A program made the position numbers and the translations under genes. A stretch of DNA of 8,436 nt from an uncultured Eubacteriales bacterium (lineage in GTDB: Bacteria; Bacillota_A; Clostridia; Christensenellales; Aristaeellaceae): the NCBI GenBank assembly GCA_944333375.1, contig CALVKX010000078.1, positions 1 through 8,436 on the forward strand, written 5' to 3'. The notes beneath the pieces are model-generated. The model was not told the DNA's origin, did not search any database, and saw nothing but the letters and a program-made list of their open reading frames with translations. This document shows, one piece after another, positions 649 to 8,436 of this stretch (within the stretch, counting starts at the first letter, position 1; the number at the start of each line of letters is the position of its first letter).

Positions 649-722
649 TGGGGAATTGTGTAACGGCAGCACCTACGACTCTGACTCGTATTGTCTAGGT
701 TCGAATCCTAGTTCCCCAGCCA
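649..722 (+). tRNA. tRNA-Gln (anticodon CTG)
   Basis: The 74-nt sequence folds into a full cloverleaf. The acceptor stem TGGGGAA pairs with TTCCCCA (712-718). The D stem GTGT/GCAC closes with one G-U pair. The anticodon stem TACGA/TCGTA carries the loop CTCTGAC with anticodon CTG. The T stem CTAGG/CCTAG encloses TTCGAAT. The discriminator is G (719) and CCA is encoded (720-722). The weak first acceptor pair (T-A) is usual for tRNA-Gln. It reads CAG. Its 3' CCA directly touches the next tRNA with no spacer. Confidence 0.95.
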
Positions 723-882: not shown

Positions 883-2796
883 TTATTCCAGCTCAAACGC
901 GCCGGTATAGAGCCGGTAATACGCGCCCTTCTGGGCGATGAGGTCCTCGTGGCTGCCGCGCTCGATGATGCGTCCATGGTCCAGGACCATGATAGCGTTG
1001 GAGTTGCGCACGGTGGAGAGGCGGTGGGCGATGACAAAGACCGTGCGGCCCTGCATCAGCGCATCCATGCCCTTTTGCACGATGCTCTCGGTGCGGGTGT
1101 CGATGGAGGAGGTAGCCTCGTCGAGGATCATCACCGGCGGATCGGCCACGGCGGCGCGGGCGATGGAGATGAGCTGGCGCTGGCCCTGGCTCAGGCCGCT
1201 TCCGTCGCCGGTGAGGATGGTCTGATAGCCGTTGGGCAGCATGCGGATGAAGGCGTCGGCGTTGACGAGCTTGGCGGCGCGGATGCAGTCCTCGTCGGTG
1301 GCGTCGAGCTTTCCGTAGCGCAGGTTCTCCATCACGGTGCCGGTAAAGAGGTTGACATCCTGAAGCACCATGCCCAGCGAGCGGCGCAGGTCGCTCTTGC
1401 GGATCTTGTTGATGTTGATGCCGTCATAGCGGATCTTGCCATCGGCGATGTCGTAGAAGCGGTTGAGCAAATTGGTGATGGTGGTCTTGCCCGCGCCCGT
1501 GGCGCCCACGAAGGCGATCTTCTGACCGGGCTTGGCATAGAGGGAGATGTTGTGCAGCACCGTCTTGTCCGGCACGTAGCCGAAGTCCACGTCGTCCAGC
1601 ACAATATCGCCCTTGAGCTCGGTGTAGGTCAAAGTGCCGTCGTGATGCGGATGCTTCCAGGCCCACAGGCCGGTTCGCGTTTCGCTCTCCACGAGCTGCC
1701 CGTTTTCGCGGCGCGCGTTGACCAGCGTCACGTAGCCGTCGTCATGCTCGCTGGGCTGGTCCATGAGCTGGAAGATGCGCTCGGCGCCCGCAAGGGCCAT
1801 GATAATCGAGCTGAGCTGCTGGCTGACCTGACTCAGCGGCATCACGAAGCTGCGCGACAGCGTCATAAAGGAGGCGATCATGCCAAGCGTGATCGTACCC
1901 GCGCCGGCAAGTCCCACATTTGGCAGGCCCGCCAGGCTCATGGCCGCGCCCACCACGGCCAGCAGCACGTAGAGCAGATGGCCGAGGTTGTTGTTGACCG
2001 GCCCCAGAATGTTGGCGAATTTGTTGGCCGCGGTGGCGTTGCGGCACAGCTCGTCGTTGCGGCGGTCAAACTCCTCCACGGCCTTCTGCTCGTGGCAGAA
2101 CACCTTGACCACCTTCTGGCCGTTTATCATCTCTTCGATATAGCCGTTGACATCAGCCAGGGACTGCTGCTGCTTGACGAAGTATTTGCCGCTCTGCGCG
2201 CTCACCCGCTTGGTGATGTAGAGCATCAAAACCGCAAAGGCCAGCACGAACAGCGTAAGCCACAGGCTCAGGGAGAGCATGGCGCACACCACCGCCGTCA
2301 GCGAAACCACCGAGGAGAGCACCTGCGGCAGCGCCTGGGCGATCATCTGGCGTAGCGTGTCGGTGTCGTTGGTGAAGTGGCTCATGACCTCGCCGTGGCT
2401 GTGCGTGTCGAAGTAGCGGATGGGCAGGGTTTGCATGTGCGCAAACATCTCGTCGCGCACATCCTTGAGCACGCCCTGCGCCACGGTGACCATCAGGCGG
2501 TTGTAGAAATACGCGCTCACCAGGCCCACGATATAGACGCAGGCCATCATGCCCAGCGCCCGGGCCAGGCCGGTAAACACGGGATTCTCCGTCAGTAGCA
2601 GCGGCGCGATATAGTCGTCGATCAAAATGCCGATAAACGTCGAGCTCAGCACGCTGGCCACGGCGCTGAGGATGATGCAAAGCACCACCAGCACAAGCCT
2701 GAGCCGGTAGCGCGCCACGTAGCTCATCAGCCTGCGGATGGTCTGCCCGACATCCTGGGGCCTTGCGCCCCCGCGAATTCTCATACCCCGCATCAT
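883..2796 (-). CDS. ABC exporter half-transporter, canonical-ATPase subunit of a heterodimer
   Basis: This 637-residue protein has an N-terminal six-helix exporter domain (about 25-335) and a C-terminal ATPase domain (about 395-637). Visible motifs are Walker A GATGAGKT (431-438), Q-loop Q479, signature LSQGQ (535-539), Walker B VMILDE (555-560) with catalytic Glu560, and switch His591. The signature has Gln where Gly is usual, which is the typical pattern for the subunit that lends its signature to the degenerate site of a heterodimer. About 45 extra residues (351-395, with WAWKHPHHDG) join the two domains; I have seen similar linkers in other Clostridia exporters. Its ATG (2794-2796) overlaps the TGA of the upstream exporter gene as ATGA, with GGGAGG 9 nt upstream, so the two are probably translationally coupled. 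It likely exports drugs or other hydrophobic compounds; the substrate is not readable from sequence. Confidence 0.93.
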   Translation of the reverse strand: MMRGMRIRGGARPQDVGQTIRRLMSYVARYRLRLVLVVLCIILSAVASVLSSTFIGILIDDYIAPLLLTENPVFTGLARALGMMACVYIVGLVSAYFYNRLMVTVAQGVLKDVRDEMFAHMQTLPIRYFDTHSHGEVMSHFTNDTDTLRQMIAQALPQVLSSVVSLTAVVCAMLSLSLWLTLFVLAFAVLMLYITKRVSAQSGKYFVKQQQSLADVNGYIEEMINGQKVVKVFCHEQKAVEEFDRRNDELCRNATAANKFANILGPVNNNLGHLLYVLLAVVGAAMSLAGLPNVGLAGAGTITLGMIASFMTLSRSFVMPLSQVSQQLSSIIMALAGAERIFQLMDQPSEHDDGYVTLVNARRENGQLVESETRTGLWAWKHPHHDGTLTYTELKGDIVLDDVDFGYVPDKTVLHNISLYAKPGQKIAFVGATGAGKTTITNLLNRFYDIADGKIRYDGININKIRKSDLRRSLGMVLQDVNLFTGTVMENLRYGKLDATDEDCIRAAKLVNADAFIRMLPNGYQTILTGDGSGLSQGQRQLISIARAAVADPPVMILDEATSSIDTRTESIVQKGMDALMQGRTVFVIAHRLSTVRNSNAIMVLDHGRIIERGSHEDLIAQKGAYYRLYTGAFELE

Positions 2797-4541
2797 TCCT
2801 CATCGCCTCCCTTCATCTGGGACTCATAGACCTCGCGGTAAATCGGGCTTCGGCTCATCATCTCGTCGTGCGTGCCCACATCCATCACACGGCCCTCGTT
2901 GAGTACGATGATCTGATCCGCGTCCATCACGCTGGCCACGCGCTGGGCGATGATGATCTTGGTGACGTTGGGGATCTCCTCCAGAAACGCCTTGCGAATC
3001 AGCGCGTCAGTCGCGGTATCCACGGCGCTGGTGGAGTCGTCCAGAATCAGGACCTTGGGATTTTTCAAAAGCGCGCGGGCGATGCACAGGCGCTGCTTCT
3101 GGCCGCCGGAGACGTTGGTGCCGCCCTGCTCGATGTAGGTGTCATATCCGTCGGGGAAGGACTGGATGAAGCCGTCGGCCTGCGCCAGCTTGCAGGCGTG
3201 AATCATTTCCTCGTCGGTGGCGTGCTCGTTGCCCCAGCGCAGGTTGTCCTTGATGGTGCCGGAGAACAGCTCGTTCTTTTGCAATACGAAGGCCACCGCG
3301 TCGCGCAGGGTTTCCAGGTCATAGCGCCGCACGTCCACGCCGCCCACGGACACGCTGCCCTCGCTTACGTCGTACAGACGCGGAATGAGCTGCACCAGGC
3401 TTGACTTGGACGATCCCGTGCCGCCCAGGATGCCGATCGTCTGCCCGGAGGCGATGTTCAACTTCACATGGTCCAGCACCGGCTTTTCGGCGCTGGCGTT
3501 ATAGCGGAAGGTCACGTCATCAAAGACGATGGAGCCGTCCTTCACCTCCGTCACCGCGTTTTCGGGCGAGACGATGGCGCTTTTCTCCTGCAACACCTCG
3601 TCAATGCGCTCCATGGAGGCGCGGGAGATGACGATCATGACAAACACCATGCTCAGCATCATCAGGCTGGAGAGGATCTGCATGGTGTAGGTAAACAGGC
3701 TGGTCAGCTCGCCCGTGGACAGGCCCAGCACCGCGTCGCCGCCGCAGGCCACCACCGCCTTGGCGCCGAACCAGCTGATAAGCAGCATGCAGCCATAGAC
3801 GGAAAACTGCATCAGCGGCATATTGAAGGCCAGAATACGCTCGGCATGGGAGAAATCCTGATAGATGTCGCTGGAGATGGCGCCGAACTTCTCCTCCTCG
3901 TAAGCCTCGCGCACAAAGGACTTGACCACACGGATGCCGCGCAGGTTCTCGCCCACGACGCCGTTGAGGCGATCATAGAGTTTGAACACGCGCTCAAAAA
4001 TCGGATGCGCGTGGCTGGCGACTAGGTACAGGCCAATGCCCAGAACCGGGATGAAGGCCAGGAAGATCACCGAGAGCTGCCAGTCGATGCAGATGGCGGC
4101 GCCCAGGGAGAAGATCAGCATAAACGGCGCGCGCACCGCGATGCGGATGACCATCTGGTAGGCGTTTTGCACGTTGGTCACGTCCGTGGTCAGACGGGTG
4201 ACCAGGCCGCCGGTGGAGAATTTGTCGATGTTGGAAAAGGAATATTCCTGCACATGGCTGTACATGTCCCTGCGCAGGTTCTTGGCAAAGCCCGCCGAGG
4301 CCATGGCGGAGTACTTTCCTGCCAGCGCACCGAAGCACAGCGACAGAAGCGCCGCCAAAACGAGGATCAGACCCGTTTTGAGAATGTAGGGCATGTCGCC
4401 CCCGTTGATCCCCTTGTCGATGAGGTCCGCCATCACCAGCGGGATGACCACCTCCATGACCACCTCCAGCGATACGTAAATGGATGCTTTAATAGATGGG
4501 ACCCTGAACTCCCGGATGCTTTTCATCAGGCGTTTGACCAT
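2793..4541 (-). CDS. ABC exporter half-transporter, degenerate-site subunit of a heterodimer
   Basis: This 582-residue exporter has a membrane domain at about 15-310 and an ATPase domain at about 335-582. It carries Walker A GGTGSSKS (373-380, Ser for the second-last Gly), Q-loop Q421, a canonical signature VSGGQ (477-481), Walker B VLILDD (497-502) and IIAQRVAS around Q533. Asp502 replaces the catalytic Glu and Gln533 replaces the switch His. The same two changes mark the degenerate-site subunit of TM287/288-type heterodimers. Its intact signature would complete the active site of the 637-residue partner encoded next. The start ATG (4539-4541) has AGGAGGG 6 nt upstream. It lies 36 nt downstream of marR and belongs to the same transcript. 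The family is clear; the cargo is unknown. Confidence 0.93.
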   Translation of the reverse strand: MVKRLMKSIREFRVPSIKASIYVSLEVVMEVVIPLVMADLIDKGINGGDMPYILKTGLILVLAALLSLCFGALAGKYSAMASAGFAKNLRRDMYSHVQEYSFSNIDKFSTGGLVTRLTTDVTNVQNAYQMVIRIAVRAPFMLIFSLGAAICIDWQLSVIFLAFIPVLGIGLYLVASHAHPIFERVFKLYDRLNGVVGENLRGIRVVKSFVREAYEEEKFGAISSDIYQDFSHAERILAFNMPLMQFSVYGCMLLISWFGAKAVVACGGDAVLGLSTGELTSLFTYTMQILSSLMMLSMVFVMIVISRASMERIDEVLQEKSAIVSPENAVTEVKDGSIVFDDVTFRYNASAEKPVLDHVKLNIASGQTIGILGGTGSSKSSLVQLIPRLYDVSEGSVSVGGVDVRRYDLETLRDAVAFVLQKNELFSGTIKDNLRWGNEHATDEEMIHACKLAQADGFIQSFPDGYDTYIEQGGTNVSGGQKQRLCIARALLKNPKVLILDDSTSAVDTATDALIRKAFLEEIPNVTKIIIAQRVASVMDADQIIVLNEGRVMDVGTHDEMMSRSPIYREVYESQMKGGDEE

Positions 4542-4577
4542 AGCTTTCCCTCCTGTCGGAATGATCTTGAAACGGCA

Positions 4578-5006
4578 TTATTCCAGATTTTTGAACATGC
4601 GGTCCAGAAAATCATAGAGCATCTGGATCTCCCCGGCCGTAAATCCACGCATCAGCTGCTCGTCCACGGAGCTGCCGGTCTGACACATCTCCTCAAGCAG
4701 CGCGCGCGAGCGCTCCGTAAGAACCAGCTTTTTCAGCCGCGCGTCGTGCGCCACGCTCCTGCGCTCCACAAGCCCCTTCTGTTCCATCAGCCGCAGAACC
4801 CGCGAGGCCGTGGAACGGGTGATGCCGAACGCCTCCTCCAAATCCTTTTGGTAGATGTCCCGGTCCGCATGCTCGCTCAGGAAGCGGATGATGCGGCCGT
4901 TGCTGCCGCTGACCGCCTCGATCTCGTGCTGCGCAACGGCCCGACACACACAGCGTCGGATGCGGTTGTCCAGCCGGTGAATGTCGATTCCAATCTTTCG
5001 TTGCAT
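4578..5006 (-). CDS. MarR-family transcriptional regulator of the ABC exporter operon
   Basis: The protein has 142 residues, the usual MarR length. A winged helix-turn-helix spans about 51-98: helix YQKDLEEAFGI, recognition helix TRSTASRVLRLMEQKG (63-78), then a wing with the D-x-R motif (Asp88, Arg90) that is conserved in MarR proteins. Flanking helices (about 8-28 and 100-141) would form the dimer interface. The start ATG (5004-5006) has GGAGGG at 5011-5016, a rather short 4-nt gap. It is the first gene of the operon, 36 nt before the exporter pair. By analogy with other MarR-exporter operons it probably represses its own promoter and releases it when a ligand binds; operator candidates lie at 5024-5051. 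The ligand cannot be inferred. Confidence 0.93.
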   Translation of the reverse strand: MQRKIGIDIHRLDNRIRRCVCRAVAQHEIEAVSGSNGRIIRFLSEHADRDIYQKDLEEAFGITRSTASRVLRLMEQKGLVERRSVAHDARLKKLVLTERSRALLEEMCQTGSSVDEQLMRGFTAGEIQMLYDFLDRMFKNLE

Positions 5007-5023
5007 TTGGCCCTCCGTTTAAA

Positions 5024-5051
5024 TGTTTTATATGCAACAGTTGTACGACAA
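5024..5051. promoter_or_regulatory. Candidate MarR operator region
   Basis: Two imperfect inverted repeats lie between the marR -10 box and its ribosome binding site. TGTTTTATATGCAACA (5024-5039) matches at 6 of 8 pairs. TTGTACGACAA (5041-5051) has TTGT/ACAA arms and spans the predicted start of transcription (near 5047). MarR dimers usually bind sites of this size that overlap the promoter. No experiment or known consensus for this protein supports the choice. Confidence 0.35.
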
Positions 5052-5053
5052 AC

Positions 5054-5081
5054 ATTATAGCGCGGAAAAACGATTTGTCAA
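5054..5081 (-). promoter_or_regulatory. Promoter of the marR-ABC exporter operon
   Basis: On the minus strand TTGACA (5076-5081), a 16-bp spacer and TATAAT (5054-5059) match the sigma-A consensus at both hexamers. Transcription should start near 5047, giving a leader of about 40 nt. Both hexamers being perfect suggests a strong promoter held down by a repressor. Confidence 0.82.
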
Positions 5082-5324
5082 TGAAAGAATCCAAAAAAAT
5101 TTTCCGCGCATATCAGCCGCCTTCTCGGGGAAGAAATGGGAAAACCGGGATTGTTTGGACGCCGAAAAACGTTAGTTAGGATGACGCTTCCATCATTTCG
5201 GGGAGGAAATGCGGCCCGAAGGCCGTTTACAAGTTTAACCCATCTGTGACCGGTTGTATCGGATTTGTTGATGAAACTTCGCATTTTCAGGCAAAAGCGT
5301 AATGCTTTTCTTAGAAAGCATACG
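5082..5324. other. Intergenic region between the divergent marR and metallophosphoesterase promoters
   Basis: I see no supportable gene here. It contains an approximate direct repeat (CGGGGAAGAAATG at 5126-5138 and CGGGGAGGAAATG at 5199-5211), a short hairpin CGGCC-CGAA-GGCCG (5212-5225), and a stem-loop next to the downstream promoter (5298-5324). The sequence is more AT-rich than the flanking genes. The in-frame extension of the metallophosphoesterase back to 5265 lies upstream of its promoter and is not considered coding. Confidence 0.5.
5298..5324. promoter_or_regulatory. Inverted repeat directly upstream of the metallophosphoesterase -35 box
   Basis: ATGCTTT (5302-5308) pairs with AAAGCAT (5315-5321) around a 6-nt loop. 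The stem is extended by CGT/ACG (5298-5300, 5322-5324) past one unpaired A. An overlapping alternative hairpin is AAAAGC/GCTTTT (5293-5309). The repeat ends exactly where the -35 hexamer begins, so it may be a protein binding site. It could also be an ancient terminator-like hairpin without function. Confidence 0.3.
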
Positions 5325-5353
5325 TTGACTTACCCGAGCGGCTGGCCTATGAT
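5325..5353 (+). promoter_or_regulatory. Promoter of the metallophosphoesterase-hydrolase operon
   Basis: TTGACT (5325-5330), a 17-bp spacer and TATGAT (5348-5353) each differ from consensus at one base. Transcription should start near 5360, which places the earlier in-frame ATG at 5265 outside the transcript and supports translation from 5382. Confidence 0.75.
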
Positions 5354-5381
5354 GATACTACTATATATGGGGGTGTATGAG

Positions 5382-6464
5382 ATGGGAAAGCGCAAGAATG
5401 AGTATATCTTCGCCCCCGAAAAGCAGAAAACCGGAAGGCTGGGATGCCTGGCGACGGTGCTGGCCATGATCGTGGCGCTGGTGCTGGCGACGTTTCTGCT
5501 CAATCATGCCGCCAACAGCCGCGTTTCGCTCCTGAGCGAGCGCGTCTCGGTGATGGGGCTGGACAAGACCTTTGAAGGCTTTACGGTGCTGCATCTGAGC
5601 GATCTGCACGCCGCGCCGCTGGGAAGCGACATGGAGCTATGGCAGTCGCTGCTCAAGGGCAAGAGCTTTAACGCCGTCGTGCTCAGCGGCGACATGGTGG
5701 GCGGCAGCGGCAACTATGAGCCCATGCTGACGCTGATCCACACGCTCCGTCAGCTGAATCCCAAGGCGCCTGTATACTTTATCGCCGGCGATGACGACCC
5801 CGACGCGGTGGTGACGACGCCGCGGGGGACGCCGGAGGTGCTCAACGACTGGGTGCTCGCCGCCCAGGCCGAAGGCGCCATTTACCTGGACGCGCCTGTG
5901 CGTCAGGAGGTGGGAAAGCTCAGCGTCTGGTTTACCCCGGAATACCTCTATGATGTGAACACCGAAGGCATGGTGAGCAGCCTGGCCAAGCAGAAGGAAG
6001 AGATGGAGGCGCTGGGCCAGCAGTACGAGGCGGAGGGAGGCGCGAGCTACCGCGCGCTGTGTTACCGCCTGGACGTCATGGAACGGACCGTCGCCGCGCA
6101 GCAGGAAATGCTTTCCACCGACCTGCAGATCGCCGTCACCCACGCGCCGCTGATTCAGGACTATATCCGCACCAGCCTGGAATGGGCCGACGAGGAGGCG
6201 GTCTTCGGCTTCCGCTCCATCAGTCTGCTGCTGGCGGGCCATTACTGCGGCGGCCAGTGGCGCGTGCCGGGCGTGGGCGCGCTCTATGAGCCGGACATGG
6301 GCTGGTTCCCGCCGGACAGCGGGCTGGTGGGCATGCAGCGCGTCAACAGCATCAACCAGTATATCTCGGGCGGCCTGGGCGCCAACGAATACCACCCCCT
6401 CAAGGGACGGATGTTCAACAGCCCCAGCGCAACGCTCATCAAATTTACAGCCACCATTGAGTGA
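5382..6464 (+). CDS. Membrane-anchored metallophosphoesterase with altered metal-site motifs
   Basis: The 360-residue protein has a short basic N-terminus, one membrane helix (about 21-41) and a calcineurin-like phosphoesterase domain facing outward. Motifs in order are SDLH (Asp74, His76), SGD (Asp104), IAGDDDP (134-140), THAP (His254) and AGHYCGGQW (285-293). The usual GNH(D/E) is replaced by GDDD and the usual GHxH by GHYC, so one metal-ligand Asn becomes Asp, the catalytic His becomes Asp, and a ligand His becomes Cys. GHYCGGQWRVPGVGALYEP still resembles the C-terminal block of YkuE-type enzymes. A Glu/Gln-rich helical insertion lies at about 195-245. The reading frame is open back to 5265, but the promoter at 5325-5353 and GGGGG (5369-5373) before ATG 5382 favour this start; ATG 5367 is possible. 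The alpha/beta hydrolase gene follows after 7 nt. The substrate is unknown and activity may differ from the family. Confidence 0.85.
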   Translation: MGKRKNEYIFAPEKQKTGRLGCLATVLAMIVALVLATFLLNHAANSRVSLLSERVSVMGLDKTFEGFTVLHLSDLHAAPLGSDMELWQSLLKGKSFNAVVLSGDMVGGSGNYEPMLTLIHTLRQLNPKAPVYFIAGDDDPDAVVTTPRGTPEVLNDWVLAAQAEGAIYLDAPVRQEVGKLSVWFTPEYLYDVNTEGMVSSLAKQKEEMEALGQQYEAEGGASYRALCYRLDVMERTVAAQQEMLSTDLQIAVTHAPLIQDYIRTSLEWADEEAVFGFRSISLLLAGHYCGGQWRVPGVGALYEPDMGWFPPDSGLVGMQRVNSINQYISGGLGANEYHPLKGRMFNSPSATLIKFTATIE

Positions 6465-6471
6465 GGTAACT

Positions 6472-7155
6472 ATGGAGATTACGCTTTATCATGCCGACAC
6501 AGGCAGCGGAAAACCCCTGATCCTGCTTCACGGAAACGGCGAGGACGGGTCGTACTTCGACTGTCAGAAGGACGCCCTCGCCCGGCACTTTCGCGTCATC
6601 GCGCTGGACACCCGCGGTCATGGCCGCTCTCCCAGAGGGACCGCCCCCTTTACGATCTCCCAGTTCGCCGAGGACCTGCGCTGCTTCATGGACCATCAGG
6701 GCATTGCGCGGGCCAGCCTCCTGGGCTTTTCCGACGGGGGCAACATCGCCCTGACCTTCGCCCTGCGCTACCCTGAGCGCGTGGACCGCCTGGTCCTCAA
6801 CGGCGCCAACCTCTTTCCCTCCGGCGTGAGACCTTCCCTTCAGATTCCCATCATCCTGCGCTGTTGCCTCGCCTCCCTGACAGCCTGGACCGGCCCCCAG
6901 GCCCGCCGCAGGCTGGAATTGCTTCGCCTGATGGTCTTTCAGCCGCATATCCACCCTCAGGCGCTCAAAAACCTCACCGTCCCGACCCTTGTGATCGCCG
7001 GCACCCGGGACATGATCCGCGACAGCCATACCCGCAGGATTCATGCCTCCCTCCCCAACGCTGAGCTCGTCATCCTGCCGGGCGACCACTTCATCGCCCG
7101 CAGCAACGCCCAGGCCTTCCGTGAGGCGGTAGAGGCATTTCTTCTCAGGGAATAA
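6472..7155 (+). CDS. Alpha/beta-fold hydrolase
   Basis: The 227-residue protein is a compact alpha/beta hydrolase. The oxyanion-loop motif HGNGEDG occupies 20-26. The nucleophile elbow GFSDGG (85-90) carries Ser87. Asp180 in AGTRDMI is the likely catalytic acid and His206 in PGDHF the likely base. The cap between strand 6 and the acid is short (about 115-165), and no signal peptide is seen, so it is probably cytoplasmic. The start ATG at 6472 follows the metallophosphoesterase stop by 7 nt, and GAGG overlapping that stop acts as ribosome binding site, so the two are likely coupled. The frame is open upstream to 6286 inside the previous gene, but that part is a shadow and lacks hydrolase features. 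General esterase, lipase or peptidase-like activity is possible; the substrate is unknown. Confidence 0.9.
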   Translation: MEITLYHADTGSGKPLILLHGNGEDGSYFDCQKDALARHFRVIALDTRGHGRSPRGTAPFTISQFAEDLRCFMDHQGIARASLLGFSDGGNIALTFALRYPERVDRLVLNGANLFPSGVRPSLQIPIILRCCLASLTAWTGPQARRRLELLRLMVFQPHIHPQALKNLTVPTLVIAGTRDMIRDSHTRRIHASLPNAELVILPGDHFIARSNAQAFREAVEAFLLRE

Positions 7156-7167
7156 ACCCCTCCCCGC

Positions 7168-7191
7168 GGCGCAGGCGCATCCGCCTGCGCC
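7168..7191 (+). repeat. Left hairpin copy, lacking a T-run, 12 nt after the hydrolase stop codon
   Basis: A perfect 10-bp stem GGCGCAGGCG/CGCCTGCGCC with loop CATC. Its position just after the hydrolase stop is where a terminator hairpin would be expected, but it is followed by AGCGTG instead of a U-tract. Bases 7168-7190 recur exactly at 7510-7532. Confidence 0.85.
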
Positions 7192-7484
7192 AGCGTGTCG
7201 AAAAAGCTCGCCTACGGCGATCTTTTCCGCCAGGACACGTTTCCCCTGCGCCTGCGGCGCGGCCGGGGAAACGTGCAAGGAAACCTTGCTGCGCAAGGCT
7301 TCCGAATCCACCGCACATGTCGCTGGATTCGGATTTCATTCGGAGGGGACGGAGGGAAGCGTGTGCCCTGTGGGCACTTGCGCGAAGCGCAAAGCGACCC
7401 GAAGGAGTCAACCGAAACGAGCGGAGGGCGCGGCCAGCGTCCGCCGCGACGATTGAGGTTGCGGGTCTGCGGCCCTCCGAACCT

Positions 7485-7500
7485 CCCTGAAGGGTTTTTT
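7485..7500 (+). terminator. Weak terminator-like hairpin inside the structured element
   Basis: A short stem CCC-TGAA-GGG is followed by six T residues (7495-7500). The stem is too short for an efficient terminator by itself. The T-run also pairs with the A-run of the left inverted repeat (7201-7205), so its role may be structural. Confidence 0.35.
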
Positions 7501-7510
7501 GACAGTCTGG

Positions 7511-7538
7511 GCGCAGGCGCATCCGCCTGCGCTTTTTT
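7511..7538 (+). terminator. Rho-independent terminator at the right end of the structured element
   Basis: The stem GCGCAGGCG/CGCCTGCGC (9 bp) with loop CATC is followed directly by TTTTTT (7533-7538). It would stop transcripts from the metallophosphoesterase-hydrolase operon, or from the element, before the spoIIA promoter. The T-run overlaps a further hairpin TTTTTGC-TGC-GCAAAAA (7534-7550). Confidence 0.82.
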
Positions 7539-7577
7539 GCTGCGCAAAAACCGTCCCGGCCGCATAACTAGACCAAA

Positions 7578-7584
7578 TTCGTCA
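7578..7584 (-). promoter_or_regulatory. Candidate Spo0A box at the spoIIA promoter
   Basis: The minus strand reads TGACGAA, which fits the Spo0A box consensus TGNCGAA. It directly adjoins the sigma-H-like -35 element at 7584-7592. In Bacillus subtilis the spoIIA promoter is activated by Spo0A bound near the -35 region. A 7-bp match can occur by chance, so the support comes from its position. Confidence 0.45.
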
Positions 7585-7610
7585 AAGGATATCCGTGACA
7601 GTACACGAAT
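7584..7610 (+). promoter_or_regulatory. Sigma-H-like promoter of the spoIIA operon
   Basis: AAAGGATAT (7584-7592) fits the sigma-H -35 consensus, and CACGAAT (7604-7610) fits the -10 consensus RnnGAAT except at its first base, with an 11-bp spacer between them. Transcription should start near 7617, about 30 nt before spoIIAA. In Bacillus subtilis spoIIA is a known sigma-H operon, so context agrees with the motif. Confidence 0.62.
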
Positions 7611-7646
7611 CCTACACGCGAAACGACCGCAACGGAGGGTGGAGCC

Positions 7647-7970
7647 ATGCTTGGAGCAAAGACGCAGGATTCCGTCACGGTGGTGATCGCGGGCGAGCTG
7701 GATCATTTCGCCGCCCCGCAGATCCGAAAGCGGCTGGACGAGCTGCTGGAGGACCAGACGGTCACGCACCTGGTGCTGGACCTGGAAAACCTGACATTTA
7801 TGGATTCCTCGGGCATCGGGGTGCTGCTGGGACGTCTGCGCGTATTGCAGGCGCGCGGCGGCAGCCTCAGCGTGCGCAACATGCGGCCGCCGGTGGAAAA
7901 GCTGTTTCGCCTGTCGGGGCTGGACCGCGTCATCGGCGTGGAGGATGAGATCAAGGGAGGTCGGCTGTGA
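7647..7970 (+). CDS. spoIIAA: Anti-sigma F factor antagonist SpoIIAA
   Basis: The 107-residue protein is a single STAS domain. TGELDH of the Bacillus subtilis protein is matched by AGELDH (15-20), and FMDSSGIGVLLGR (51-63) contains the phosphorylation site; the first Ser of DSSG, Ser54, corresponds to Bacillus Ser58. SpoIIAA binds the anti-sigma factor SpoIIAB and frees sigma F in the forespore. SpoIIAB inactivates it by phosphorylating that serine, and the phosphatase SpoIIE reactivates it. The start ATG has GGAGG (7634-7638) 8 nt upstream. The TGA overlaps the ATG of the next gene by one base. Gene order, length and near-identical motifs make the sporulation protein much more likely than another STAS antagonist such as RsbV. 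Confidence 0.93.
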   Translation: MLGAKTQDSVTVVIAGELDHFAAPQIRKRLDELLEDQTVTHLVLDLENLTFMDSSGIGVLLGRLRVLQARGGSLSVRNMRPPVEKLFRLSGLDRVIGVEDEIKGGRL

Positions 7971-8436
7971 TGCAGAATCGAATGGAACTTACCTTTTCCG
8001 CGCTGCCGCAGAACGAGGCGTTCGCGCGGGTGGCCATCGCGGCCTTTGCCGTGCAGCTCAATCCCACGTTGCCGGAGATGGCGGACATCAAAACCGCGGT
8101 GAGCGAGGCGGTGACCAATGCCATCGTGCACGGCTACCGCGGGCGGGAGGACGGGCTGGTCTGCATGAGCGCAGAATACGGCGACCGGCGGCTTCTCACG
8201 GTTGTGATCCGGGACGAGGGCTGCGGGATCGCGGACGTGGAAAAGGCCATGCAGCCCTTCTATTCCACGGGCGACGGCACGGAGCGCAGCGGTATGGGCT
8301 TTTGCGTGATGCAGACCTTTATGGACGCGGTGGAGGTGGACAGCGCCGTAGACAGGGGAACGACCGTCACCATGCGCAAATACATCACCGGCGAGGTGGG
8401 GTTGCACCGTGAGCGAATGCTTGACGAAATCGGCTG
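7970..8436 (+). CDS. spoIIAB: Anti-sigma F factor and serine kinase SpoIIAB (3' end outside window)
   Basis: The reading frame is open from ATG 7970-7972 to the window edge (155 codons). It starts MQNRMELTFSALPQNEAFAR and follows Bacillus subtilis SpoIIAB closely. Arg20, which contacts sigma F in the known family, is present. The GHKL ATPase motifs are the N box SEAVTNAIVHGY (45-56, Glu46 and Asn50), G1 RDEGCGI (81-87) and RSGMGF (106-111), with GTT at 130-132. SpoIIAB binds sigma F in its ATP form and phosphorylates SpoIIAA. GGGAGG at 7955-7960 lies 9 nt before the start, which overlaps the spoIIAA stop (TGATG), a sign of coupling. The Bacillus protein is 146 residues, so this one is a little longer; its stop lies beyond the window. 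Confidence 0.95.
   Translation, partial: MQNRMELTFSALPQNEAFARVAIAAFAVQLNPTLPEMADIKTAVSEAVTNAIVHGYRGREDGLVCMSAEYGDRRLLTVVIRDEGCGIADVEKAMQPFYSTGDGTERSGMGFCVMQTFMDAVEVDSAVDRGTTVTMRKYITGEVGLHRERMLDEIG
8409..8436 (+). CDS. Possible start of the sigma F gene (sigF / spoIIAC), tentative
   Basis: In spoIIA operons the sigma F gene follows spoIIAB. A GTG at 8409 opens a frame (VSECLTKSA) that stays open to the edge and has GAGGTG (8393-8398) 10 nt upstream, which would overlap the 3' end of spoIIAB. Only nine codons are visible and none is diagnostic, so this rests on gene order and the ribosome binding site; the real start may lie outside the window. Confidence 0.22.

What the first reader, a model, noticed from the sequence alone, without database searches (positions are those of the whole stretch)
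7168..7538. Terminal-inverted-repeat element made of tandem hairpins between a hydrolase gene and the spoIIA operon
The left 38 bases match the reverse complement of the right 39 bases with few differences. Each end is also a perfect hairpin, so the outer 22-23 bases are direct and inverted repeats at once. Inside, at least seven further hairpins lie nearly end to end, several with 8-10 perfect pairs. No protein is encoded. This is far more structure than an ordinary intergenic spacer and could be a miniature transposable element, a family of intergenic repeats or a structured RNA with a basal stem formed by both ends. I cannot assign it to a known family.
Basis: partly seen in the sequence, partly recalled or inferred. 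Interest (0 to 1): 0.75.

Follow-up and report, generated by a model that had tools for sequence, protein, structure and literature searches.

The report
Mini-transposon inside a duplicated transcription terminator
A small non-coding jumping element has inserted at the hairpin that ends a gene's transcript and left a complete copy of that hairpin on each side of itself, and a second, structured repeat of unknown kind is nested inside it.

Summary
The mobile element proper is 7191-7509 (319 bp, CAGCGTGTCGAAAAA...TTTTTTGACAGTCTG). The outer hairpins (7168-7190, 7510-7532) are not its ends: they are an exact 23-bp duplication of what was the hydrolase gene's terminator hairpin. Two relatives with the same gene order have one terminator hairpin and no element. 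Of 27 complete elements scored, 17 are flanked by long direct repeats (17-46 matching bases; 0.1% of random pairs), mostly palindromic and different at every locus. Transposase-bearing loci with similar ends belong to the IS1182 family, and 17 of 23 such ends abut a hairpin. Best reading: a miniature (MITE) derivative of an IS1182-family element that targets terminator hairpins and duplicates the whole hairpin. The known relative IS1272 deletes or replaces its hairpin; whole-hairpin duplication was only a drawn possibility there. Nested inside is a second 119-bp repeat (module B, 7348-7466), which also occurs without such ends, has no curated Rfam match and covaries strongly (25 of 35 pairs). 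Its function and means of spread are unknown; a RAYT/REP link was tested and not supported.

The parts
7168..7190 (.). Left copy of the target-site duplication: the complete terminator hairpin stem GGCGCAGGCGCATCCGCCTGCGC, now cut off from its T-tract
   Evidence: Exact 23/23 match to 7510-7532; 17 of 27 complete elements carry such repeats, with a different sequence at each locus
7191..7205 (+). Left terminal inverted repeat CAGCGTGTCGAAAAA
   Evidence: Many BLAST matches begin at or within a few bases of this point; 23 of 33 BLAST-collected copies start with CAG here; it abuts the direct repeat; similar ends at IS1182-family loci
7191..7347 (+). MITE module A, 157 bp, with four predicted hairpins, three of them with compensatory changes
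   Evidence: Repeated in relatives; alignment A3 of 33 copies, 16 of 47 predicted pairs with changes on both sides
7348..7466 (+). Module B: nested 119-bp structured repeat, placed in the loop of an internal hairpin of the MITE (TCGGAGGG|B|CTGCGGCCCTCCGA)
   Evidence: Absent at exactly this point from the ~200-bp copies; 140 bits with its own model R1 (the window copy is in the training set); 25 of 35 pairs covary
7467..7509 (+). Right end of the MITE, including the right terminal inverted repeat 7495-7509 (TTTTTTGACAGTCTG)
   Evidence: Alignment A1 of 16 copies (these were cut at their ends by pattern, so the ends agree by construction); it abuts the direct repeat
7510..7532 (+). Right copy of the target-site duplication: the terminator hairpin still joined to its T-tract (7533-7538)
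   Evidence: terminator-like site; -19.3 kcal/mol; orthologous single terminator in L001/L341 and L342
6286..7155 (+). ORF holding the alpha/beta-hydrolase gene whose terminator was hit (the true start probably lies downstream of 6286)
   Evidence: Pfam Abhydrolase_1, E 4.5e-31
7647..7970 (+). Downstream gene, STAS-domain protein at the head of the presumed spoIIA operon
   Evidence: Pfam STAS, E 2e-23; used to find the orthologous locus

Best explanation
It is a non-autonomous miniature element (MITE) mobilised in trans by an IS1182-family DDE transposase. The transposase binds the 15-bp ends and joins them to a target that is an intrinsic-terminator hairpin, one end at the foot of the stem on each strand. 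Gap filling copies the whole hairpin, so the element ends up between two complete copies of the terminator stem. Only the right copy keeps its T-tract and should still terminate the hydrolase transcript, now about 340 nt later. Shown here: repetition, ends, the hairpin duplication, the element-free state in two relatives, and IS1182-family loci with similar ends that also abut hairpins. Inferred: that this transposase moves this MITE, the strand-transfer geometry, recognition of hairpin structure rather than sequence, and retained termination. The 119-bp module B is a separate repeat nested in this copy.
For: Element-free orthologous sites: L001/L341 (Ca. Limiplasma pullicola, G001) and L342 (G012) have one hairpin plus T-tract between the same genes. 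Repetition: matches to one or both modules in 8 of 9 relatives and in 21 of 60 genomes around and including G001. Flanking repeats: 17 of 27 complete elements have at least 15 matching bases, against 56 of 50,000 random pairs; in the subset found by patterns blind to the flanks, 7 of 11 listed places. 11 of 17 have a T-tract after or an A-tract before the repeat, against 9.5% of control draws. Transposase: NCBIfam IS1182 on both pieces of the frameshifted gene of L175 (222.8 and 91.5 bits, E 8.5e-66 and 5.3e-26), in an IS bounded by similar ends. Of 297 genomes of the order, 3 have the exact short-element pattern (G001, G244, G316) and all 3 are among the 27 with a relative of this transposase. 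17 of 23 end-like sites in transposase-bearing loci abut a hairpin of at least 7 pairs, against 8.3% of random points. L224 is a transposase-bearing element with similar ends and a palindromic repeat on both sides.
Against: 10 of 27 complete elements lack a long repeat: 3 have different hairpins on the two sides (L003, L081, L089), 4 a hairpin on one side only, 3 neither by the criterion. Two IS seen with both ends (L175, L220) also have different hairpins on the two sides. Recombination between copies or misassembly of draft genomes could cause this; neither was tested. PF13751 was found in only 2 of the 8 relatives with element matches (G001, G003); G002, with 57 matched pieces, has none, so the engine is missing or unassembled there. 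No genome is held for the window itself. The transposase pieces score below NCBIfam's whole-protein cut-off of 270, being fragments or frameshifted. MITE and IS ends are similar, not identical. In BLAST-collected copies 10 of 33 do not start with CAG. One published IS1182-family element, ISPse1, has 4-bp repeats (PMC3281130, passage), so hairpin duplication is not general to the family.
Confidence: 0.88

Rival explanations
1. A structured RNA gene or long 3' UTR element, with the two outer hairpins and the covarying interior as one functional fold.
For: z -7.65 fold; covariation in modules A and B.
Against: The outer hairpins differ at every locus but match each other within a locus. The element is missing at two orthologous loci and is repeated many times in several genomes. 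No curated Rfam match. Covariation in simple palindromes can also arise from template-switch correction of imperfect palindromes (recalled knowledge).
Confidence: 0.06
2. REP/BIME-like repeats, or IS200/IS605-like elements moved by a Y1 (HUH) transposase that recognises end hairpins.
For: Hairpin at each end, intergenic, dispersed, modular. Y1_Tnp was found in 7 of the 15 carrier genomes searched, against 4 of the 15 others.
Against: Terminal inverted repeats next to the duplication. 8 of 15 carriers have no Y1_Tnp match (G001-G005, G007, G012, G014), among them those with the most matched pieces; these are drafts. Module B does not border the Y1 genes inspected: one weak hit in 13 loci, which cover 14 of the 30 listed Y1 matches.
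Confidence: 0.03
3. IS1272-type stem-loop replacement: the element replaced the target hairpin, and both flanking hairpins come from elsewhere.
For: Same IS family; the published IS1272/TnSha1 mode (PMC5678879, PMC4923244). It could explain copies with different or missing hairpins.
Against: The target hairpin is kept and doubled, 23/23 here and in 17 of 27 elements overall.
Confidence: 0.03

Closest known systems
IS1272 / TnSha1 (IS1182 family, staphylococci; Wan 2017 PMC5678879, Furi 2016 PMC4923244)
   Same: IS1182-family transposase, inverted repeats of 15-16 bp, insertion at hairpins of unrelated sequence, several of them terminators
   Different: IS1272 deletes or replaces the stem-loop and leaves no duplication; here the whole stem-loop is duplicated. 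Wan et al. draw whole stem-loop duplication only as a possible pathway (Fig 13b legend and text).
IS1182 family in general
   Same: Transposase family; direct repeats of 2-60 bp are recorded in ISfinder according to PMC7335449 (passages read); some members are said to target palindromes (Siguier 2015, seen only as cited in the two IS1272 papers)
   Different: The element here is a transposase-less ~200-bp derivative with nested module B; ISPse1 of the family has 4-bp repeats (PMC3281130, passage)
Bacterial MITEs such as RUP, BOX, SPRITE (PMC10969869, passages)
   Same: Short, non-coding, largely intergenic, able to insert into one another
   Different: No sequence relation was tested; the target here is a terminator hairpin duplicated in full
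REP / BIME repeats with RAYT
   Same: Module B is a dispersed, structured intergenic repeat, sometimes in tandem
   Different: No RAYT association found; B is a 119-nt two-domain fold

Membership tests
MITE (non-autonomous DNA transposon) | Short, no transposase, terminal inverted repeats | tested here: met
   319 bp here, ~200 bp typical; 15-bp ends; no Pfam match for the longest + strand ORF
MITE (non-autonomous DNA transposon) | Many dispersed copies and insertion polymorphism between relatives | tested here: met
   8 of 9 relatives with matches to module A or B; element-free sites in L341 and L342
MITE (non-autonomous DNA transposon) | Target-site duplication | tested here: met
   23/23 here; 17 of 27 elements
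IS1182-family derivative | IS with matching ends encodes an IS1182-family transposase | tested here: met
   L175 IS 1496-2988 with ends CAGACTGTCAAAGAA and CAGTCTGTCAAAAAA; NF033551 and PF05598 + PF13751 matches; the two pieces score below the whole-protein cut-off
IS1182-family derivative | Transposase acts on these MITE ends | not testable with these tools
   Needs a transposition assay; 3 of 3 genomes with the short-element pattern carry a transposase relative, but only 2 of 8 relatives with matches have PF13751
IS1272-type stem-loop replacement | Target hairpin deleted, no duplication | tested here: not met
   Hairpin present twice; L001/L341 and L342 show one hairpin without the element
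IS1272-type target choice | Target is a hairpin, often a terminator, of no fixed sequence | tested here: met
   The 17 repeat sequences all differ; 11 of 17 have a T- or A-tract; 13 of 17 have a hairpin of at least 7 pairs on both sides
REP/RAYT (module B) | Y1 transposase gene in the genome, flanked by the repeat | tested here: not met
   7 of 15 carriers have a Y1_Tnp match, 8 do not (drafts); one weak R1 hit at 13 Y1 loci
Known Rfam RNA (module B or whole element) | Match above the gathering score | tested here: not met
   Only two tRNAs in the window; best sub-threshold match E 0.72

The most novel reading that the evidence does not exclude
Module B (7348-7466) is an independent, structurally conserved element of a new kind: a 119-nt two-domain fold, read as RNA or single-stranded DNA, that spreads through genomes of this group of Clostridia on its own and in tandem, and also rides inside terminator-seeking IS1182 MITEs as cargo.
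Probability: 0.3. Interest if true: 0.7.

Novelty: new variant of a known kind. Interest (0 to 1): 0.55.

Why it matters
If the hairpin's length sets the length of the duplication, the transposase must read a DNA structure (an extruded terminator hairpin) rather than a sequence. That would be a natural, countable record of structure-guided transposition, and it matches a branch that was only drawn as a possibility for IS1272. It also suggests how a selfish element could sit in compact genomes with little harm: it lands at a terminator and doubles it instead of destroying it. The nested module B adds a strongly covarying structured repeat with no curated RNA family.

Tried and rejected
Structured RNA as one unit: rejected as the main reading, because the outer hairpins are locus-specific duplications. 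Rfam: nothing. REP/RAYT or IS200/IS605 origin: tested and not supported, though 7 of 15 carriers do have a Y1 gene. Phage or plasmid residence: no match in 50,697 phage and 72,556 plasmid records; in IMG/VR, 1 contig for an exact module B pattern and 0 for an exact module A pattern. Outward-facing terminators at both element ends: only the left end (minus strand) folds better than shuffles (z -2.33), the right end does not (z 0.85), and a pattern scan of 7100-7660 gave 3 terminator-like sites against 1.0 (sd 0.9) expected; I do not claim it. A fixed gene context for module B in G212: none seen in 13 of the 23 hits that I examined. Further element-free sites for other insertions: two tries gave none. 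L083's flank led to a G012 contig end that I did not inspect further; L205's flank led to other elements at the same terminator in G001 and G003.

Counts to read with care; the L175 row was dropped because the script paired it wrongly (28 rows became 27); three more complete elements listed (L107, L145, L147) had too little flank to be scored, L107 with different flanks. Copies at contig ends could not be scored. One search counts are BLAST pieces with at most 40 candidates scored per genome, and for G007-G009 the rows listed are to module B; one search listed only 7 of the 12 elements in G244; I take the two sets of 297 genomes to be the same, since both were drawn in the same way, but names only 47 of them. 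In one search my typed structure shifted helix 4, so its helix-4 rows are an artefact; one search has the right pairs. In one search the 23 ends are pattern hits in transposase-bearing loci, not each proven to be an IS end; with stems of 6 pairs or more it is 19 of 23 against 23.8% of random points.

Full report
What is in the window. Between an alpha/beta-hydrolase gene (stop at 7153-7155) and a STAS-domain gene at the head of the presumed spoIIA operon (7647) lies a spacer. It holds an exact 23-bp direct repeat, 7168-7190 and 7510-7532, which is itself a hairpin, and between the two copies a 319-bp stretch, 7191-7509. The whole folds far better than shuffled sequence (z -7.65). Rfam finds only two tRNAs elsewhere in the window, and nothing convincing at relaxed thresholds.

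Relatives and the element-free site. No genome is held for the window. The adjacent STAS protein led to L001 (Ca. Limiplasma pullicola, a genus of Clostridia; 88% identical protein), with about 84% DNA identity over 885-7160 and 88% over 7511-8436, and to more distant loci. In L001 the same two genes are separated by one terminator hairpin and T-tract of different stem sequence, with no element. A search with 6300-7155 in 15 genomes gave matches in 14, but only two of them long: G001 (the same site) and G012. G012 also has a single hairpin with T-tract and no element; the 12 with short matches were not inspected. So the hairpin-element-hairpin arrangement in the window is derived. In L003 (Ca. 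Limiplasma stercoravium) an element of the same family sits upstream of the same operon, but with a different left hairpin; the 102 bp of contig to its left show no window homology.

Repetition and boundaries. DNA search with 7160-7545 matched 8 of 9 relatives' genomes, 5 of them with 40 or more pieces; for the three most distant (G007-G009) the rows listed there are to module B. The element matched 21 of 60 genomes around G001, G001 included. Complete copies have ends of the form CAGnnTGTCrAAAAA; these were chosen by pattern, so the agreement of ends there is by construction. In copies collected by BLAST alone, 23 of 33 start with CAG at window 7191. The typical complete copy is about 200 bp; the window copy is 319 bp because of an insert at one exact point. 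The sequences just outside the ends differ between loci but match each other within a locus: 24/24 in L083, 28/28 in L086, 25/25 in L205 and L210, 26/26 in L171. Over all complete elements that my script could score, 17 of 27 have a flanking direct repeat of at least 15 matching bases, 13 of these 17 with a hairpin of at least 7 pairs on both sides; 3 have two different hairpins, 4 a hairpin on one side, 3 neither (one mis-paired row dropped). Random pairs of positions reach that repeat in 56 of 50,000 draws. Among elements found by patterns that ignore the flanks it is 7 of 11 listed places, including G244, whose elements differ in body sequence but have the same ends. 11 of the 17 have a T-tract after or an A-tract before the repeat, against 9.5% of control draws. 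The target is thus, in most of these cases, an intrinsic terminator, and the duplicated unit is its whole stem-loop, 19-49 bp as aligned.

The likely engine. PF13751 occurs in G001 and G003 only, 2 of 9 genomes and 2 of the 8 with element matches; in the other six the engine is missing or unassembled. In L114 (G001; L113 and L174 are the same site) a transposase fragment ends beside CAGCCTGTCAAAGAA, which abuts a hairpin. In L175 (G010) a ~1.49-kb IS has such ends on both sides and a frameshifted transposase whose two pieces match NCBIfam IS1182 (E 8.5e-66 and 5.3e-26) and Pfam PF05598/PF13751. Relatives of it are found in 27 of 297 genomes of the order, some weak. The exact short-element pattern occurs in 3 of 297 genomes of the order (reversed control 0), and all 3 are among those 27. 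In transposase-bearing loci, 17 of 23 pattern-matched ends abut a hairpin of at least 7 pairs, against 8.3% of random points. L224 is a transposase-bearing element with similar ends and a palindromic repeat on both sides. Two IS with both ends seen (L175, L220) have different hairpins on their two sides; I count this against the simple model and can only suggest recombination between copies or misassembly.

How it works. By the DDE chemistry described for IS1272 (PMC5678879; [quoted passage not shown] The authors drew this as a possible pathway (Fig 13b) but observed loss of the hairpin instead. Furi et al. (PMC4923244; passages read) likewise report insertion into terminator hairpins with partial deletion and no duplication. 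PMC7335449 (passages read) cites ISfinder for IS1182-family direct repeats of 2-60 bp, and PMC3281130 (passages read) lists one member, ISPse1, with 4 bp. So terminator targeting and long repeats are known for the family; a MITE family in which the repeat is the whole terminator hairpin is not described in what I found. That statement rests on ten searches of the open-access library, mostly seen as listings; ISfinder itself and subscription papers were not seen. The MITE review PMC10969869 (passages read) does not mention IS1182.

A recurrent target. At one other terminator, G012, G001 and G003 each carry an element of this kind against the hairpin that follows the same gene; the G001 one has a different body that contains module B, and its right end was not recognised. 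Whether that is one old insertion or repeated hits is open.

Module B. The insert at 7348-7466 is an independent repeat. It sits at the same point of module A in copies from several genomes, but also in other MITEs (L086, L194, L207, L208). Of 46 aligned copies, 9 lie between two end-like sites; of the 29 with 400 bp of flank on both sides, 14 have no end-like site on either side (pattern with at most 1 mismatch, so decayed ends are missed). Its alignment gives 35 pairs, 25 with changes on both sides; 95.9% of cells pair; 216 cells have double changes against 58.6 (sd 6.1) in shuffles; the covariation score is 0.406 against 0.035-0.068 when the partners are slid. The structure was derived from the same alignment and the copies are related, so these figures favour it; the window copy folded alone does not form the first enclosing helix. 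Template-switch repair of palindromes (recalled) could mimic covariation in the simple hairpins, less easily in the two enclosing helices. A model built from it hits 6 of 200 genomes of the order; four of these have 17 or 18 hits, the cap being 18, and two of the four (G001, G014) supplied training copies. G212, with a 3.26-Mb contig, is one of the four. Some copies are in tandem. In G212, ten 20-kb stretches chosen for hits hold 23 and the first 200 kb hold none. Of the 13 examined, nearly all lie between genes by a crude ORF call in which short overlapping ORFs were taken as spurious; one overlaps the start of a long ORF. Orientations are mixed, and copies lie near tRNA genes in 3 of 8 stretches. 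Y1 transposases occur in 7 of 15 carrier genomes and 4 of 15 others, but B does not border the Y1 genes inspected. What moves B, and what it does, is unknown.

Verdict. This is an IS1182-family MITE between two copies of its target terminator, with a second structured repeat inside: a new variant of a known kind.

Noticed in passing
window 7348-7466; L248 343-642; L103: Module B: a 119-bp strongly covarying repeat with no curated Rfam match, nested in MITEs and also free or in tandem; origin and function unknown.
   Followed up: partly
window 7585-7611: Upstream of the STAS gene, AAAGGATAT...ACACGAAT resembles a sigma-H promoter (consensus recalled); similar sequence stands at the same place in most of L001-L009. 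The element ends about 75 bp upstream of it, the right hairpin about 50 bp.
   Followed up: no
L334, L335, L205: The terminator after the same gene carries an IS1182-type element in three genomes (G001, G003, G012), with different bodies; a possible insertion hot spot.
   Followed up: partly
L223 297-1486: A direct-repeat array about 61 bp apart (GTTTTCCCCAC-CGCGTGGGGGTGAACCG), CRISPR-like, lies next to an IS1182 transposase fragment in G071.
   Followed up: no
L003, L081, L089, L175, L220: Elements with a hairpin on each side but of different sequence; perhaps recombination between copies.
   Followed up: no
window 649-719 and 723-794: Two tRNA genes side by side.
   Followed up: no
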